A DNA stretch of 52,555 bases, from assembly GCA_949127775.1 (NCBI GenBank), contig CASBQF010000300.1:1-52555 (forward strand). Reading direction: 5' to 3'. The translations under genes and the position numbers were made by a program. A model generated the notes under the pieces. The model was not told the DNA's origin and did not search any database. It worked only from the letters and a program-made list of their open reading frames with translations. Shown here one piece after another: positions 12,235 through 38,277 of the stretch (positions are counted from its first letter, which is position 1; every line of letters begins with the position of its first letter). This stretch comes from Oscillatoriales cyanobacterium PMM_0080. Lineage in GTDB: Bacteria > Cyanobacteriota > Cyanobacteriia > Cyanobacteriales > Microcoleaceae.

Positions 12235-12370
12235 AAGGTGCGTCGCCATGAGATTGTCGATTGAATGCGAGGGATTTATCGCAGGCGACACACCCTACAA
12301 ATAAGGTGCGTCGCCATGAGATTGTCGATCGAATGCGAGGGATTTATCGCAGGCGACACACCCTACAAAT
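12235..12370. repeat. Two tandem 68-bp repeats with internal dyad
   Basis: Units at 12235-12302 and 12303-12370 differ by a single T/C change. Each unit contains GTGCGTCGCC near its start and GGCGACACAC near its end, so each can fold by itself. Preceding sequence (12098-12234) holds more degenerate pieces of the same GTAGGGTGCGTC type. The repeat fills most of the 311-base gap between the GT2 gene and the convergent riboflavin synthase gene. Confidence 0.9.
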
Positions 12371-13358: not shown

Positions 13359-13871
13359 ATGATTGAAATGAAAGTCGCTGGAATTGCTTTAGATGCAGCC
13401 ACGCGCAGCCCTATTGTCTTATTGAGAGACTCTACTGAGCGACGCGCTTTGCCTATTTATATCGGTCAGGAGCAGGCAAAGGCTATTATTAGTGCTCTGG
13501 AAGGCCACAAGCCTCCCCGACCTTTAACTCACGATTTGATGGTCAATTTCCTAGAGGCCTGGAATCTTACCTTGGAGCGAATAGTGATTCATTCGCTGCA
13601 AGATAACACGTTCTATGCCGTCCTGATCGTCCGTCAGGGTGAAGTTAAAAAAGAGATCGATGCCCGGCCCAGTGACGCGATCGCCCTGGCCATACGCACG
13701 AATAGCCCCATCTGGGTGATGGAAGAAGTGGTCGCAGATGCTTCCATACCAGTCGATCGAGATGCTGATGAGGCCGAACGCCGGGCCTTCCGGGAATTTG
13801 TCTCAAACCTCCGCCCAGAGGATTTGATCAAAAGAAGCGGCTTGGGCCAGAGTCAGGAACCCCATAGTTAA
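13359..13871 (+). CDS. Bifunctional nuclease (BFN) family protein, DUF151
   Basis: This 170-residue protein begins MIEMKVAGIALDAATRSPIVLL and contains LPIYIGQEQAKAI, VIHSLQDNTFYAVL and the signature IDARPSDAIALAIR. This set marks the bifunctional nuclease domain, known from plant BFN proteins with DNase and RNase activity; the biochemical role of cyanobacterial members is not established. The length is typical. The ATG at 13359 gives the best N terminus. The stop codon TAA (13869-13871) is immediately followed by the proposed left end of the IscB element, so the element has inserted at the very 3' edge of this gene without disrupting it. Confidence 0.9.
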   Translation: MIEMKVAGIALDAATRSPIVLLRDSTERRALPIYIGQEQAKAIISALEGHKPPRPLTHDLMVNFLEAWNLTLERIVIHSLQDNTFYAVLIVRQGEVKKEIDARPSDAIALAIRTNSPIWVMEEVVADASIPVDRDADEAERRAFREFVSNLRPEDLIKRSGLGQSQEPHS

Positions 13872-14110
13872 AACTAGGGGCTTGCAAAGTCCGACTCTTC
13901 GAGCGGTATGGAGCAAGCCGAACCTGACCAGGCTCGCGTCCTTCGAGGACTACGTTTTTTGAGTCATGACACCGACGAATGCGTAGCCAGTTCGTTGCTC
14001 TGTCGCTAAAAGTTAAACAGTTCTAACGGGTTAAGACAGTGCTTTTAGCCGAACAAGCTCATTAAACATTGCCGAGGCTCACATTACACGCAAGTAGAAG
14101 AGACGCAAAA
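13872..14110 (+). ncRNA. Candidate omega-RNA for IscB
   Basis: About 240 non-coding bases precede iscB, the known position of its guide RNA. Several stems can be paired: GGCTTGC/GCAAGCC (13879-13885 with 13913-13919), GTCCT/AGGAC with a short loop (13938-13942 with 13946-13950), and GCTAAAAG/CTTTTAGC (14005-14012 with 14042-14049). In IscB systems the guide is at the 5' end and comes from the flank of the element, so here it would come from the 3' end of the BFN gene. The precise 5' and 3' ends of the RNA are not visible. Confidence 0.6.
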
Positions 14111-15385
14111 ATGTCTAACTTTATTTTCGTTCTAGACACGAAAGGACGATCACTATCACCCTGCCAACCAGGAGTAGCACGGTCATTACTGAAAGCAGGT
14201 AAAGCATCCGTCTTCAGGCGATTCCCCTTCACAATTATTTTAAACAAAGAGGTTAATGCAAGTCCTGAGCCGTTAGAACTCAAACTAGATCCAGGATCGA
14301 AAACTACCGGCATTGCCATCAAGCAGGGCGACAAGGTTATTTTCGGAGCCGAACTACAACATCGAGGACAACAGATTAAAGAAGCACTGCTGTCTCGTCG
14401 TCAACTCAGGCGAGGAAGACGCAATCGCAAGACTCGGTATCGTCAGGCGCGATTCCTCAATCGCACCCGTCTTGATGGAAAGCTTGCTCCATCCTTGCAA
14501 CATCGGATTGAAACAACACTCACATGGGTTCGCAAGTTGATGCGATTTGCACCCATTGCCAGCATTGTTCAAGAGCTAGTACGGTTTGACTTGCAACTCA
14601 TGCAAAACCCTGAAATCTCAGGCGTTCTGTATCAACAAGGAGAATTATGCGGGTATGAGGTGCGAGAGTATCTCTTGGCAAAATGGAATCGACAATGCGC
14701 TTACTGTTCGGTTGAAAATGTACCGTTTGAAATCGAACACATTCAGCCCAAATCAAGAGGTGGCTCCGACAGGGTTTTTAACTTGACGATTGCCTGTCAC
14801 GATTGCAATCAAAAGAAAGGCAATCAGGATGTTCGAGCATTTCTAGCGACTAAACCCGACCGGCTATTGGGCATTCTCAAGCAGGCAAAACTACCACTCA
14901 AAGATGCGGCAGCGGTCAACTCAACCCGATGGGCATTGTTCAACGCACTTAAAGAGACGGGATTGCCCGTCACTACTGGCACGGGCGGACAAACCAAGTT
15001 CAATCGCAATCGATTAGGGTTGCCCAAATTGCACTGGCTTGATGCTGCGTGTGTAGGTAACGTTGAGACGCTCGAAGTCTTGACTTCAAAGCCGTTGCTG
15101 ATTATGGCACAAGGGCATGGAACGCGACAAATGTGCGGTACAAACAAGTATGGCTTTCCTACTCGGCACAAGTCCAGAGTGCAAATCCACAAAGGATTTC
15201 AAACTGGCGATATTGTCAGTGCCACCGTTACCGCCGGCAAAAAAATCGGCTCTTATGTAGGGCGGGTTCTCTGTCGCGCTTCAGGTAGTTTTGATATCGT
15301 AGTTAAGTCTGGGAGAGTGGCAGGCATTAGTCATAAATATTGCAATCCAATTCATAAAAAGGATGGGTATAGCTATGCGTTTTGA
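14111..15385 (+). CDS. iscB: IscB RNA-guided nuclease (RuvC-HNH)
   Basis: The ATG at 14111 gives 424 residues; an upstream in-frame extension to 14069 lies in the RNA region and is rejected. The N-terminal PLMP-like motif reads SLSPC. RuvC-I is LDPGSKTTGIA (Asp60). The arginine-rich bridge helix is SRRQLRRGRRNRKTRYRQ (95-112). RuvC-II is IVQELVRFD (Glu155). The HNH domain at about 195-240 has CAYC, IEHIQPKSRGG (His210) and the second zinc pair CHDC (229-232). RuvC-III is HWLDAACVG (His308, Asp311). All catalytic positions look intact, so an active omega-RNA-guided DNA nuclease is expected. IscB is the ancestor family of Cas9. No TnpA is adjacent. Confidence 0.95.
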   Translation: MSNFIFVLDTKGRSLSPCQPGVARSLLKAGKASVFRRFPFTIILNKEVNASPEPLELKLDPGSKTTGIAIKQGDKVIFGAELQHRGQQIKEALLSRRQLRRGRRNRKTRYRQARFLNRTRLDGKLAPSLQHRIETTLTWVRKLMRFAPIASIVQELVRFDLQLMQNPEISGVLYQQGELCGYEVREYLLAKWNRQCAYCSVENVPFEIEHIQPKSRGGSDRVFNLTIACHDCNQKKGNQDVRAFLATKPDRLLGILKQAKLPLKDAAAVNSTRWALFNALKETGLPVTTGTGGQTKFNRNRLGLPKLHWLDAACVGNVETLEVLTSKPLLIMAQGHGTRQMCGTNKYGFPTRHKSRVQIHKGFQTGDIVSATVTAGKKIGSYVGRVLCRASGSFDIVVKSGRVAGISHKYCNPIHKKDGYSYAF

Positions 15386-15489
15386 GAAGGAAGTTTCAAG
15401 GCGACGGTCGTCGCCGCCGACTTCCTCCCCATGTCTAAAGCCAGGGGCCCGCCGGGCTCGCTTTTCGGTGAAACTTGTTCGTAACATTT

Positions 15490-16620
15490 ATGCGCTATCG
15501 ACGGTTTGGCAAAACTAACTTGCACCTGTCCGTATTTTCCTTGGGAACCATGCGCTATTTGGCTTCTGAGGAAATTGCAGGCCAGACTGTACAACAGGCT
15601 GTGTCTCTGGGAATCAATCACCTGGAAACGGCTGCGGGTTACGGTTGCAGTGAGGAATATCTCGGTGTGGCTCTAAAAGCTGGTTTGCCTGTCGATCGAT
15701 CGCGCCTCCACATCACTACGAAAATCTGCCCAACGGAGGATGCTGCTGCAATGGAACGCTGCATCGATGCCTCTCTCAAACGCCTGAATCTAGACTATAT
15801 CGACTGTCTGGCAATTCACGGTTTGAATACTTGGGAACATTTGGCGATCGTGCGATCGCCCACAGGCTGCATGGAATCTGTACAAAAAGCTCTGGGCGAT
15901 GGCCGCATTCGGCACGTCGGCTTTTCGACTCACGGCCCTCTGGATCTGATTTTGGCTGCGATTAATACAGATTTGTTTGAATTTGTCAACCTGCATTATT
16001 ACTATTTTTTTCAGCGCAACGCCCCGGCAATTGAACTCGCCAAGCAGAAAGATATGGGCGTTTTTATCATTTCCCCAGCAGACAAAGGAGGGCAACTCTA
16101 CACGCCCCCGGAAACCCTTGCACAATTGTGCTTTCCGAGCTCGCCCTTGGAGCTTAATTATCGGTTTTTACTCAGCGATACTAGGATTGGAACTCTCAGT
16201 GTCGGGCCTGCGAATCCGATGGAATTAGAGGAACCTCTGAAATATGCCGATCGCGACTTTCCGCTCACAAATGCCGAAATCGCTCAGTTTGCGAGGCTAG
16301 AATCGGTGATAGCCGATCGTTTGGCAACAGACAAATGCAGCCAGTGCTATGCTTGTTTGCCTTGTCCAGAAAACATCAACATTCCTGAAGTATTGCGACT
16401 CCGCAATCTCGCAGTCGGGTGTGACATGACTGACTTCGGTAAATACCGGTACGCTATGTTTGAAAATGCCGGACACTGGTTTCCCGGTAGCAAAGGCAAC
16501 CGCTGCACCGATTGTGGCGAATGTTTGCCCCGGTGTCCCGAAGAGTTAGACATCCCAACCTTGCTTAAGGATACTCACCAGCGACTGGGCGGCAAAGCAG
16601 GCAGGCGGTTGTGGGATTGA
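15490..16620 (+). CDS. Aldo/keto reductase with C-terminal ferredoxin-like 4Fe-4S domain
   Basis: The ATG at 15490 (MRYRRFGKTNLHLS) was chosen; the frame extends 5 codons upstream into the IscB element end. Residues 1-270 form an aldo/keto reductase barrel, with the catalytic Tyr in ETAAGYGCSEEYLG, the Lys in HITTKICP and IDCLAIHGL. From about 280 to 365 a ferredoxin-like region carries CSQCYACLPCP and CTDCGECLPRCP, enough cysteines for two 4Fe-4S clusters. This fused architecture is a known class in cyanobacteria and anaerobes; the substrate is unknown. The BFN gene may once have been its direct upstream neighbour, before the IscB insertion. Confidence 0.9.
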   Translation: MRYRRFGKTNLHLSVFSLGTMRYLASEEIAGQTVQQAVSLGINHLETAAGYGCSEEYLGVALKAGLPVDRSRLHITTKICPTEDAAAMERCIDASLKRLNLDYIDCLAIHGLNTWEHLAIVRSPTGCMESVQKALGDGRIRHVGFSTHGPLDLILAAINTDLFEFVNLHYYYFFQRNAPAIELAKQKDMGVFIISPADKGGQLYTPPETLAQLCFPSSPLELNYRFLLSDTRIGTLSVGPANPMELEEPLKYADRDFPLTNAEIAQFARLESVIADRLATDKCSQCYACLPCPENINIPEVLRLRNLAVGCDMTDFGKYRYAMFENAGHWFPGSKGNRCTDCGECLPRCPEELDIPTLLKDTHQRLGGKAGRRLWD

Positions 16621-33150: not shown

Positions 33151-33711
33151 ATGTCTGTTCAGACTCAAAGACGGCTATTTACAGTGCAAGAATATCACCT
33201 AATGAGTGAGGCTGGGGTATTTAGAGATAACGAACGAGTGGAACTGATCGAAGGAGAAATTATCGAAATGGCAGCAATTGGTAGGCGTCACGCCGCCCGT
33301 GTCGATCGCCTGGCGCGAATGTTCAGCCGCATTCCAGAGTCGTTGGTGATTTTCCGAGTGCAAAATCCTATTTGCCTTAATGATAACTCAGAACCGCAAC
33401 CTGATATTGCTTTAGTCCAACCCCGCGCTGATTTTTATGAAGAATCCTTGCCAAATAGCCAGGATGTTTTGCTATTGGTAGAGGTAGCAGATAGTACCGT
33501 TAATTATGACCGCGATGTAAAAATACCGCATTATGCGCGATCGGGGATTCAGGAAGTATGGCTCTGGGATCTGGAAGCAAACTGTTTAGAAGTTTACCGC
33601 GATCCGACGATCAATGGCTATATTTCAATGCAAAGGTTTGAGCGGGGACAATTGGTTTCGCCGCTGGCTTTTCCAGACTTTCCAGTGAGTATTGATTTAA
33701 TCTTAGGTTAA
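33151..33711 (+). CDS. Uma2 family (DUF820) endonuclease-like protein, array copy 1
   Basis: This 186-residue protein has the PD-(D/E)XK-type core of the Uma2/DUF820 family: ELIEGEI at 31-37, Pro84-Asp85 (EPQPDIALVQPR), Glu111 in LLLVEVADST, Lys124 in RDVKIPHYAR, and the ending SGIQEVWLWDLE. Restriction-endonuclease-like folding is known for the family, but substrate and role are not. The start ATG follows GGAGAATAGTT, a leader shared by all four array copies. It belongs to a set of four tandem paralogues on one strand with 40-80 bp gaps. Residues 54-69 (LARMFSRIPESLVIFR) differ strongly between copies while the flanks are almost identical. Confidence 0.9.
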   Translation: MSVQTQRRLFTVQEYHLMSEAGVFRDNERVELIEGEIIEMAAIGRRHAARVDRLARMFSRIPESLVIFRVQNPICLNDNSEPQPDIALVQPRADFYEESLPNSQDVLLLVEVADSTVNYDRDVKIPHYARSGIQEVWLWDLEANCLEVYRDPTINGYISMQRFERGQLVSPLAFPDFPVSIDLILG

Positions 33712-33752
33712 AATAGTAAACTAAAACCAACTGCTAAAAAAGGAGAATAGTT

Positions 33753-34313
33753 ATGTCTGTTCAGACTCAAAGACGACTATTTACTGTGCAAGAATACCAC
33801 CTGATGAATGAGGCTGGCGTATTTAGAGATAACGAACGAGTGGAACTTATAGAAGGAGAAATTATCCAAATGGCTGCAATTGGTAGGCGTCACGCCGCCC
33901 GTGTCGATCGCCTGGCAGAGTTTTTTTACGACCAAGTGCGAACAAGTGCGATCGTCCGAGTGCAAAATCCTATTTGCCTTAATGATAATTCTGAACCTCA
34001 ACCTGATATTGCTTTAGTACAGCGTCGCGCTGATTTTTATGAAGAATCCTTGCCAAATAGCCAGGATGTTTTGCTGTTGGTAGAGGTAGCAGATAGTACC
34101 GTTAATTACGATCGTGATGTAAAAATACCGCATTATGCGCGATCGGGGATTCAGGAAGTATGGCTCTGGGATCTGGAAGCAAACTGTTTAGAAGTTTACC
34201 GCGATCCGACGACCAATGGCTATATTTCAATGCAAAGGTTTGAGCGGGGACAATTGGTTTCGCCGCTGGCTTTTCCCGAGTTGACAGTGAGTATTGATTT
34301 AATTTTGGGTTAA
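33753..34313 (+). CDS. Uma2 family (DUF820) endonuclease-like protein, array copy 2
   Basis: This 186-residue paralogue is nearly identical to copy 1 over residues 1-53 and 70-170. It keeps Asp85, Glu111 and Lys124. The difference is concentrated at 55-68 (AEFFYDQVRTSAIV) and in the last ten residues. It shares with copy 1 the block ICLNDNSEPQPDIALVQ and the acidic YEESLPNSQDV, so copies 1 and 2 form one subclass. The spacing from copy 1 is 41 bp, and the same leader (AAAAGGAGAATAGTT) precedes the ATG. The pattern suggests recent duplication followed by change, or gene conversion of the flanks. Confidence 0.9.
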   Translation: MSVQTQRRLFTVQEYHLMNEAGVFRDNERVELIEGEIIQMAAIGRRHAARVDRLAEFFYDQVRTSAIVRVQNPICLNDNSEPQPDIALVQRRADFYEESLPNSQDVLLLVEVADSTVNYDRDVKIPHYARSGIQEVWLWDLEANCLEVYRDPTTNGYISMQRFERGQLVSPLAFPELTVSIDLILG

Positions 34314-34354
34314 AATAGTAAACTAAAACCAACTGCTAAAAAAGGATAATAGTT

Positions 34355-34915
34355 ATGTCTGTTCAAATGCAAAGACGACTATTTACAGTGCAAGAATATC
34401 ACCTGATGGCTGAGGCTGGCGTTTTTGGTGAAGATGATAGAGTTGAATTGATCGAAGGAGAAATTATCGAAATGGCAGCAATTGGGACTCGTCATGCAAG
34501 TTGTGTAAAGCGTCTGATCGCTGTGTTCTCCGATCTGGAGAGAAGACGTGCTATTTTGGGTGTTCAAGATCCCATTCAGTTGACAGAAAGGACTGAACCT
34601 CAGCCGGATGTGGTATTGCTACAGCCTCGTTCTGACTACTACGCTACAGCGCATCCAATGCCGTCAGAGGTATTGCTTTTGGTAGAGGTTTCAGATAGTA
34701 CGGTTGATTTCGATCGTGATGTGAAAGTACCGAATTATGCGCGATCGGGGATTCAGGAAGTCTGGTTATGGGATTTAGAAGCTAACTGTTTAGAAGTTTA
34801 CCGCAATCCTACGGCAAATGGCTACACTTCCATCCAAAGATTTGAGCGAGGAGAAATTATTTCACCGTTAGCTTTCCCTGATTTCCAAGTAAGTGTTGAT
34901 TTAATCTTGGGTTAG
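34355..34915 (+). CDS. Uma2 family (DUF820) endonuclease-like protein, array copy 3
   Basis: This 186-residue paralogue shares the first 45 residues and the C-terminal half with the others but has a different middle (IQLTERTEPQPDVVLLQPR, YYATAHPMPSEV) that matches copy 4, so copies 3 and 4 form a second subclass. Asp85, Glu111 and Lys124 are kept. The variable patch reads IAVFSDLERRRAIL. The leader is the same with one change (GGATAATAGTT), which weakens the Shine-Dalgarno and may lower translation. It is 41 bp after copy 2. Confidence 0.9.
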   Translation: MSVQMQRRLFTVQEYHLMAEAGVFGEDDRVELIEGEIIEMAAIGTRHASCVKRLIAVFSDLERRRAILGVQDPIQLTERTEPQPDVVLLQPRSDYYATAHPMPSEVLLLVEVSDSTVDFDRDVKVPNYARSGIQEVWLWDLEANCLEVYRNPTANGYTSIQRFERGEIISPLAFPDFQVSVDLILG

Positions 34916-34995
34916 GCTGCTTTCTTCTGTAGCTAGAATATTAGAAGCGAAAATAAGTAAACTTAGGCTAACCGCAAAAAAAAAGGAGAATAGTT

Positions 34996-35556
34996 ATGTC
35001 TGTTCAGACCCAAAGACGGCTATTTACTGTGCAAGAATACCACTTAATGAGTGAGGCTGGTGTTTTTGCCAATCATGAACGAGTCGAACTAATAGAAGGA
35101 GAAATCATCCAAATGGCTGCAATTGGTACTCGTCATGCTACTTGTGTGCGACGACTGATCCGACAGTTTCGCCAAATTCCAGAAGAAAGTGCTATTTTGG
35201 ATGTTCAAAACCCAATTCGGTTAACTCAACGTACCGAACCTCAATCAGATGTTGTCTTGCTACAACCTCGTGATGACTACTACGAAACAGCCCATCCAAT
35301 ACCGTCAGAAGTTTTGCTATTAGTTGAAGTTTCAGATAGTACAGTTGATTTTGATCGGGATGTGAAAGTACCTAACTATGCTCGTTCTGGGATTCAGGAA
35401 GTATGGTTGTGGGATTTAGAAGCTAATTGTTTAGAAGTTTACCGCGATCCCACAGCAAATGGCTATACTTCAATACAAAGATTTGAGCGCGAAGAACAAG
35501 TTTCGCCACTGGCTTTTCCTGAATTTCTAGTGAGTATTGATTTAATCTTGGGTTAG
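34996..35556 (+). CDS. Uma2 family (DUF820) endonuclease-like protein, array copy 4
   Basis: This 186-residue paralogue closely resembles copy 3 in the middle and C-terminal parts. The Pro before Asp85 is replaced by Ser (EPQSDVVLLQPR), but Asp85, Glu111 and Lys124 remain. The variable patch is IRQFRQIPEESAIL. The gap from copy 3 is 80 bp, longer than the other gaps, and includes the same leader just before the ATG. Third-position differences from copy 3 are more numerous than between copies 1 and 2, suggesting an older split. Confidence 0.9.
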   Translation: MSVQTQRRLFTVQEYHLMSEAGVFANHERVELIEGEIIQMAAIGTRHATCVRRLIRQFRQIPEESAILDVQNPIRLTQRTEPQSDVVLLQPRDDYYETAHPIPSEVLLLVEVSDSTVDFDRDVKVPNYARSGIQEVWLWDLEANCLEVYRDPTANGYTSIQRFEREEQVSPLAFPEFLVSIDLILG

Positions 35557-36645: not shown

Positions 36646-36803
36646 TATGAGATAGCTCCGCTTTACAAGCATTTATAAATTGCCAAATTAAATATCTTTA
36701 AATTTTAATAAAAATTATAAAATTCTTAAAATTTTACGGAGTTGTGGAATTGTTCATAAAGATTTAATCTTTCCCCAACATAAGTGCTAGTATTATAAAC
36801 CAA

Positions 36804-38277
<1,474 letters not shown>

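What the first reader, a model, noticed from the sequence alone, without database searches (positions are those of the whole stretch)
13872..15474. Complete solo IscB element with intact nuclease sites and an upstream structured RNA candidate
The 424-residue IscB keeps RuvC Asp60, Glu155, His308/Asp311, the HNH His210 and both zinc cysteine pairs, so it should be able to cut. The preceding 240 non-coding bases fold into several stems. No TnpA is present, so mobility depends on a transposase in trans. This is the clearest RNA-guided system in the window.
Basis: partly seen in the sequence, partly recalled or inferred. Interest (0 to 1): 0.75.

Follow-up and report, generated by a model that had tools for sequence, protein, structure and literature searches.

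The report
Cyanobacterial IscB guide-RNA jumping element
This is an intact mobile element in a cyanobacterium that carries IscB, a small predicted RNA-guided DNA-cutting enzyme related to Cas9, with its guide RNA; that part is an ordinary member of a known family, but the genome also holds copies of the guide RNA without the enzyme, and in related genomes such copies tend to sit exactly in front of gene start codons.

Summary
Confirmed, with corrected borders. The window (a whole contig of a Microcoleus draft genome) holds a complete IscB element at 13852-15467 (1616 bp). IscB (14111-15385, 424 aa) has every catalytic and zinc residue named; dN/dS is 0.12-0.15 against four close relatives. The leader is Rfam HEARO (RF02033, the IscB omega-RNA), 150 bits, at 13852-14087, starting 20 nt inside the upstream bifunctional-nuclease gene. 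All 27 same-genus genomes with a match to that gene have an uninterrupted site. This fixes both ends, the predicted guide (about 13836-13851) and the flanking motif GTGA; the left junction reads GTCA, so the occupied site should be spared. No IS200/IS605 TnpA was found in the draft genome.

Beyond the finding: the genome has 11 HEARO matches but two IscB-like genes. Nine have no IscB; the eight that could be measured are 0.33-0.49 kb minis with the omega-RNA but no nuclease. In 21 sampled Microcoleus genomes, 49 of 71 unique ATGA-site minis end exactly at a probable start codon, against 31% of comparable background sites; the four IscB elements with a located right end do not. Standalone omega-RNAs are known; I found no report of the start-codon pattern, but two primary papers were not readable.

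The parts
13852..15467 (+). Complete IscB (OMEGA) mobile element, 1616 bp; 2-nt ambiguity of the ends
   Evidence: Empty-site comparison: in 27 of 27 same-genus genomes with a match to the flanking gene the two flanks lie at most 248 nt apart; base-level junctions printed for the 18 nearest
13836..13851 (+). Predicted 16-nt guide (5' of the omega-RNA scaffold), lying in the 3' end of the upstream bifunctional-nuclease gene
   Evidence: Position relative to the HEARO start; guide length by analogy with OgeuIscB, 16-17 nt (PMC9640706 passages); inference, no transcript data
13852..14087 (+). HEARO / omega-RNA scaffold, RF02033, 150 bits
   Evidence: 59 of 67 projected consensus pairs are standard in this sequence
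14111..15385 (+). iscB, 424 aa, RuvC + HNH residues intact
   Evidence: AlphaFold model pLDDT 77.8, pTM 0.63, first ten PDB matches all IscB or IsrB
15393..15467 (+). Right end with small palindromes and T-rich tail (...GCTCGCTTTTCG), homologous to the right ends of other Microcoleus HEARO elements
   Evidence: This right end was one of five seeds of the profile, so its own hit is by construction; the profile also finds ends behind IscB in L131, L149, L157 and in minis
15468..15473 (+). GTGAAA: flanking target motif, predicted TAM (host DNA)
   Evidence: Present in the empty site of the nearest relative L100; GCGA in the other 17 printed. 27 of 27, later 90 of 92, located right ends have ATGA/GTGA next to them (the profile seeds included the motif)
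13359..13871 (+). Upstream gene: bifunctional nuclease domain protein (PF02577), last residues replaced by element sequence
   Evidence: the protein ends QEPHS here; the empty allele L100 reads ETSS by hand translation of the junction
15475..16620 (+). Downstream host gene: aldo/keto reductase with a 4Fe-4S domain (true start codon may lie further in)
   Evidence: follows the upstream gene in empty sites

Best explanation
An intact IscB-omega-RNA (OMEGA) element of IS200/IS605 type, inserted directly 5' of a GTGA in the last codons of a bifunctional-nuclease gene. Transcription from the host gene should run into the element and give an RNA with a 5' guide copied from the host flank (13836-13851), the HEARO scaffold, and then the iscB message. 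IscB loaded with this RNA should recognise guide + GTGA, a sequence that exists only where the element is absent: in a sister chromosome or in the donor site after excision. Cutting it would force repair from the element-bearing copy, so the element is retained. The occupied site is spared because the left junction reads GTCA. Shown: element borders, empty sites, RNA family, protein family, catalytic residues, purifying selection between copies, motif at the right end. Inferred: transcription, cleavage, the TAM, retention, and mobility by a TnpA supplied from elsewhere.
For: RF02033 150 bits; IscB domains, residues, solved relatives and fold; dN/dS 0.12-0.15 with L019, L020, L021, L023; precise empty sites; left junction differs from guide+RTGA by one base; RTGA at 90 of 92 right ends located among 111 elements; IscB and HEARO co-occur: of 59 genomes all 41 with IscB (E <= 1e-20) have HEARO, and 16 of 18 without IscB have none; the four IscB elements with a located right end (window, L131, L149, L157) lie at four different sites. 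Retention/gene-drive role of the analogous TnpB: PMC11870625 passages.
Against: No transcript or cleavage data. No TnpA in the draft genome, although all 28 genus-mates have 1-17 Y1_Tnp matches, so the element may now be stranded (or TnpA lies in the missing 4%). The nearest empty allele (L100) has two mismatches in the 16-nt guide, one 5 nt from the motif, and the 17 other printed alleles read GCGA; so other strains' sites are poor targets and the drive, if any, is local. The AlphaFold model is moderate (pTM 0.63; residues 108-119 and 158-182 below pLDDT 50) and its TM-scores to IscB chains are only 0.36-0.54 on the query.
Confidence: 0.8

Rival explanations
1. One nuclease, many guides: this IscB also serves the genome's standalone HEARO copies, so the real system is one IscB and about ten dispersed guides in host transcripts.
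For: 11 HEARO matches, 2 IscB-like genes; closed genome G021: 17 HEARO matches, 2 IscB. 76 unique minis keep the scaffold: 84.8% of pair cells standard against 33-44% when slid; 35 of 67 pairs with double changes in at least two sequences, against 6-17 when slid. Standalone omega-RNAs reported to work with IscB (PMC9581776 passage). Minis with the window type of right end exist: G024_L150, G010_L237.
Against: All nine IscB-less HEAROs of this genome are closest to the omega-RNA of another IscB subfamily (L029/L027, 70-73% protein identity), which is not found in this genome; with the window's RNA they share only 66-76%. But cis RNAs of IscBs 85% identical differ as much (75%). Compensatory changes may date from autonomous ancestors.
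Confidence: 0.35
2. A dying relic: the element is stranded without TnpA, IscB is still intact only because the insertion is recent, and nothing is expressed.
For: No TnpA by two models; the insertion is private to this genome among 28 with the site.
Against: dN/dS 0.12-0.15, no stop or frameshift in this copy and four relatives; 93% HEARO identity to L149. Selection measured between copies may reflect the active lineage rather than this copy.
Confidence: 0.15
3. A host-domesticated regulator: minis abutting start codons act as mRNA leaders and IscB-omega-RNA binding tunes the host genes.
For: 49 of 71 unique ATGA minis end at a probable start codon; 41 of 69 at distance 0 from an ORF of at least 100 codons against 139 of 2320 background ATGA; host empty sites agree for three own minis, one at an ftsH-like start (gene name recalled from the translated N-terminus, no database call).
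Against: Most sampled sites are not shared between genomes (81 unique of 90), as expected of a mobile element, though sharing is underestimated because each genome was only partly sampled; selection against disrupting genes plus selection for transcription would give the same pattern; the nuclease residues of this IscB are intact.
Confidence: 0.1

Closest known systems
OMEGA system IscB + omega-RNA (OgeuIscB, OrufIscB; IS200/IS605 associated)
   Same: RRXRR/RuvC-HNH protein, catalytic residues, 5' guide + HEARO scaffold immediately upstream of iscB, motif at the 3' side of the target; best PDB hits by sequence and by fold
   Different: Shorter (424 aa against 495-496 for OgeuIscB chains); flanking motif RTGA against the NNRR TAM reported for OgeuIscB; 15-22% identity in the ten best fold alignments
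HEARO RNA, RF02033
   Same: Full-length match 1-211, above gathering
   Different: One loop holds 22 bases where the model has 1
IsrB (DtIsrB) with NTGA TAM
   Same: TGA-type flanking motif (PMC9581776 passages); among the best fold matches
   Different: IsrB lacks HNH (recalled); this protein has it
Prokaryotic MITEs and IS605-derived non-autonomous elements (for comparison with the minis)
   Same: The mini elements keep the ends and lack protein genes
   Different: They keep a complete guide-RNA scaffold and often sit at start codons in sense orientation

Membership tests
IscB (OMEGA nuclease) | Split RuvC with inserted HNH (Pfam RRXRR + HNH) | tested here: met
   (RRXRR E 9.7e-73, HNH_5, HNH, HNH_4); fold matches 1-10 are IscB or IsrB
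IscB (OMEGA nuclease) | RuvC D/E/H/D and HNH His catalytic residues | tested here: met
   D60, E155, H308, D311, H210; D60, E155, D311 invariant and H210, H308 at least 90% in an alignment of 30 sequences
IscB (OMEGA nuclease) | omega-RNA encoded directly upstream | tested here: met
   RF02033 13852-14087, 23 nt before the start codon
IscB (OMEGA nuclease) | RNA-guided dsDNA cleavage with a TAM | not testable with these tools
   Predicted guide and RTGA motif only
IS200/IS605-type mobile element | Insertion next to a fixed short motif without target-site duplication | tested here: met
   Empty sites show no duplication beyond a 2-nt ambiguity; RTGA at 90 of 92 located right ends
IS200/IS605-type mobile element | Y1 transposase TnpA in the element or genome | tested here: not met
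   PF01797 and NF033573: 0 matches in the draft genome; so it is a non-autonomous element here
HEARO RNA (RF02033) | Covariance-model match above gathering score | tested here: met
   150 against 83 bits

The most novel reading that the evidence does not exclude
In Microcoleus, IscB has become the centre of a dispersed guide system: nuclease-free omega-RNA minis have spread so that many sit as the mRNA leader of a host gene, the right end fused to the start codon (which doubles as the TAM, ATGA) and the guide copied from that gene's own 5' untranslated region. A few IscB genes per genome would then police the empty alleles of many host genes at once, a multi-locus retention or gene-drive network that uses host promoters for its guides and conserved start codons as targets.
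Probability: 0.3. Interest if true: 0.78.

Novelty: new member of a known kind. Interest (0 to 1): 0.5.

Why it matters
The element itself adds a well-defined cyanobacterial IscB with mapped ends, predicted guide and flanking motif, which makes a direct activity test easy. The genus-wide pattern matters more: if guide RNAs without nucleases sit at start codons and are used in trans, IscB has a natural many-guide mode resembling a dispersed array, and one can ask directly why HEARO copies outnumber IscB (392 against 102 matches in 29 genomes). One paper on Limnospira set HEARO RNAs aside as 'intron remnants' and asked for an analysis of their location (PMC8400943 passage); this gives one for Microcoleus.

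Tried and rejected
Viral targets of the guide: exact guide+RTGA in IMG/VR, 0 hits; 0 in the 300 loci held; only its own left junction (GTCA) in the window with up to 3 mismatches. The rest of the own genome was not scanned for guide targets.

CRISPR array in the window: direct repeats of 22 nt or more gave gene duplications, tandem coding repeats and dispersed palindromes, nothing array-like. No tRNA in the window. No direct or inverted repeat pair placed at the two element ends.

Ascertainment worry that minis without HEARO are missed: a type-1 right-end query gave 10 matches in G000; the 5 over 100 bits all lie beside a HEARO, of the 5 weaker ones one lies inside a HEARO and four are not beside a listed one. 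In closed G021 5 of 6 lie beside a HEARO (compared by eye). G017 and G012 were not fully compared.

Recurrent insertion at one start codon: 9 of 90 rows repeat an earlier site; in 3 of these the HEAROs are only 69-79% identical, so probably independent; by a rough reckoning of my own not clearly above chance, so not claimed.

C322: filled alleles lack the 37 nt between two ATGA motifs that the empty alleles have; left as a curiosity.

The alignment mixed strands and was redone.

Full report
What was checked. The ORF at 14111-15385 (+) encodes 424 residues. Pfam gives RRXRR (E 9.7e-73) and HNH; solved relatives by sequence are IscB and IsrB chains and compact Cas9 relatives. D60, E155, H210, H308, D311 and both Cys pairs are present; in an alignment of 30 sequences D60, E155, D311 and the four Cys are invariant, H210 and H308 at least 90% conserved. 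An AlphaFold model from that alignment has mean pLDDT 77.8, pTM 0.63; its first ten PDB matches are all IscB or IsrB complexes, with E 3.2e-14 or better but TM-scores on the query of only 0.36-0.54 and large rmsd.

The organism. The window is contig C300, whole, of a 6.36-Mb draft (431 contigs, 96.17% complete). The nearest IscB copies are in Microcoleus (93%, 90%, 85%), and same-genus genome G021 has the length and IscB position of M. vaginatus HSN003, so I call it Microcoleus.

The RNA. Rfam HEARO (RF02033) matches 13852-14087 over its full length with 150 bits.

Borders. In 27 of 27 same-genus genomes with a match to the upstream gene (the 28th, G003, 74% complete, had none), that gene is followed by the aldo/keto-reductase gene without the element, the two flanks at most 248 nt apart. 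Base-level junctions for the 18 nearest give an element of 13852-15467, 1616 bp, ambiguous by 2 nt. The nearest relative (L100, 97% identical upstream gene) has GTGA at the junction; the other 17 printed have GCGA. The insertion replaces only the last residues of the upstream protein.

Guide and motif. By the known geometry of IscB (5' guide of 16-17 nt, TAM 3' of the target; PMC9640706 passages), the guide is 13836-13851 and the motif GTGA. Left junction: guide followed by GTCA, one base off RTGA. Under NNRR (OgeuIscB) or NTGA (IsrB; PMC9581776 passages) GTCA would not be accepted; GCGA would fit NNRR but not NTGA. The TAM of this enzyme itself is unknown. L100 has two guide mismatches (5 and 14 nt from the motif), so the empty alleles of other strains look like poor targets; the exact target is the strain's own empty site.

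State of the element. Against L019, L020, L021 and L023 the gene has dN/dS 0.12-0.15 and no stops. The draft genome has no match to PF01797 or NF033573, while all 28 genus-mates have 1-17 matches to PF01797, a family that also holds domesticated relatives of TnpA (the last point recalled). It has 34 TnpB-type matches (32 over cut-off), none in the window.

HEARO without IscB. The genome has 11 HEARO matches, 9 over gathering, and two IscB-like genes: the window's and one on C316 matched at 35% identity over residues 5-243. In 29 Microcoleus genomes (G000-G028) there are 392 HEARO and 102 IscB matches (IscB at E <= 1e-20, fragments included; HEARO counts are lower bounds where candidates were capped); HEARO exceeds IscB in 28 and equals it in 1. 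In all 59 genomes searched, 41 have IscB and all 41 have HEARO; 2 have HEARO without IscB (G037, G049).

Mini elements. I read 111 elements: 11 own and 100 fetched from 20 genus-mates. 12 have an IscB similarity starting within 470 nt, 8 of them near full length; 5 hold less than 500 nt downstream and could not be fully judged. Right ends were sought with two profiles grown from seeds that included the flanking motif. One was located in 92 elements; in 2 of these no RTGA was found; 19 had none located, among them four IscB elements (C316, L137, L152, L235). So 21 were dropped and 90 kept, at 81 unique sites, 72 ATGA and 9 GTGA. Elements with more than 900 nt between HEARO and right end were classed as IscB/long: 5 unique, of which 4 carry an IscB gene (window, L131, L149, L157; all GTGA) and one (G021_L136) does not. 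The 76 unique minis are 0.31-0.49 kb.

Start codons. 49 of 71 unique ATGA minis have the ATG as a probable start codon (at least 60 open codons and an in-frame stop within 40 codons upstream in the empty site). In 400 kb of closed genome G021 the same test is met by 197 of 2239 ATGA sites, or 197 of 643 if only intergenic or start-like sites count; binomial p 3e-35 and 3e-11. With a stricter rule (100 codons) 41 of 69 minis lie at distance 0, against 139 of 2320 background sites; among sites within 150 nt of a start, 41 of 48 against 139 of 322. GTGA minis: 1 of 5; IscB/long elements: 0 of 5. In the own genome 4 of 7 ATGA minis pass; a fifth (C57) is cut by a contig end. The gene calls are ORF rules, not annotations, and the background is one genome. 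For own minis C315, C207 and C405 I read the site in 14, 13 and 11 relatives: 37 of 38 are empty with the left flank ending within 4 nt of the start codon (21 at exactly 0), and one (C405 in G027) is filled. C322 is filled in G027 and G010 and empty in 12, and filled in G020.

The nearest relative G027 carries a mini exactly at the start codon of the same bifunctional-nuclease gene that the window's element hits at its 3' end (G027_L163).

Do minis keep a working scaffold? On an alignment of 76 unique minis with the RF02033 structure projected from the window, 84.8% of cells pair, against 33-44% when partners are slid by 1-3; 35 of 67 pairs show changes on both sides in at least two sequences, against 6-17 when slid. 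The alignment was made by MAFFT without structure. This argues for a selected fold in the mini lineages or their ancestors; it is not proof of use.

Which IscB would serve them? The nine IscB-less HEAROs of this genome are nearest to the omega-RNAs of IscB L029/L027 (70-73% protein identity) among the ten cis RNAs compared, and L027 has the same right end as type-1 minis. The window's omega-RNA is 66-76% identical to them. Trans use by this IscB is therefore possible but unproved.

Mechanism. Best supported: a retention element, as shown experimentally for the analogous TnpB (PMC11870625 passages; that preprint is about TnpB, not IscB). Start-codon abutment then has a simple explanation: insertion at ATGA between promoter and coding region leaves the gene intact and puts the guide and scaffold under a host promoter, so such insertions are both tolerated and functional. 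A regulatory role is possible but not supported by the evidence here.

Known or new. IscB, HEARO, and standalone omega-RNAs that work with IscB are published (passages). From memory only: the 2009 HEARO description reported integration next to ATGA or GTGA; that paper and the 2021 OMEGA paper are not held. Start-codon abutment was not seen in searches (listings, with passages read in seven papers); since the two primary papers were not readable, it may already be reported there.

Noticed in passing
L001, L002, L004-L008, L010 (own genome) and fetched genus loci L129-L168, L189-L248: HEARO mini elements without IscB end exactly at probable start codons of host genes far more often than background (49 of 71 unique ATGA sites).
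   Followed up: yes
L163 (G027:C278): In the nearest relative a mini HEARO sits at the start codon of the same bifunctional-nuclease gene that the window's IscB element hits at its other end.
   Followed up: partly
L145, L146 (G012) and L165 (G027): Three IscB genes match only residues 1-43 near the HEARO, with the rest about 2.4 kb further on: an insert at about the same codon each time, perhaps an intron or IS.
   Followed up: no
own genome G000: 34 TnpB-type matches but no IS200/IS605 TnpA by two models, while all 28 genus-mates have Y1_Tnp matches.
   Followed up: partly
33151-35556: Four tandem, related 186-aa ORFs (repeat units 72-95% identical to the first), spaced 602-641 bp.
   Followed up: no
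36798-36894: TPP riboswitch (RF00059, 71 bits) directly upstream of an ORF starting at 36904.
   Followed up: no
22734, 23806, 29734, 39565, 44860, 49113: Dispersed 35-nt palindromic repeat (GGAGACGGCAGTGCCGTGTCCCTAC core), six copies, all between ORFs of 180 aa or more.
   Followed up: no
12235-12370: Tandem duplication of 68 nt (99% identical) next to a riboflavin-synthase-like gene (name recalled).
   Followed up: no
L008 and L276-L289: C322 mini: filled alleles lack the 37 nt that lie between two ATGA motifs in the empty alleles, as if the right end had jumped to the second ATGA.
   Followed up: partly
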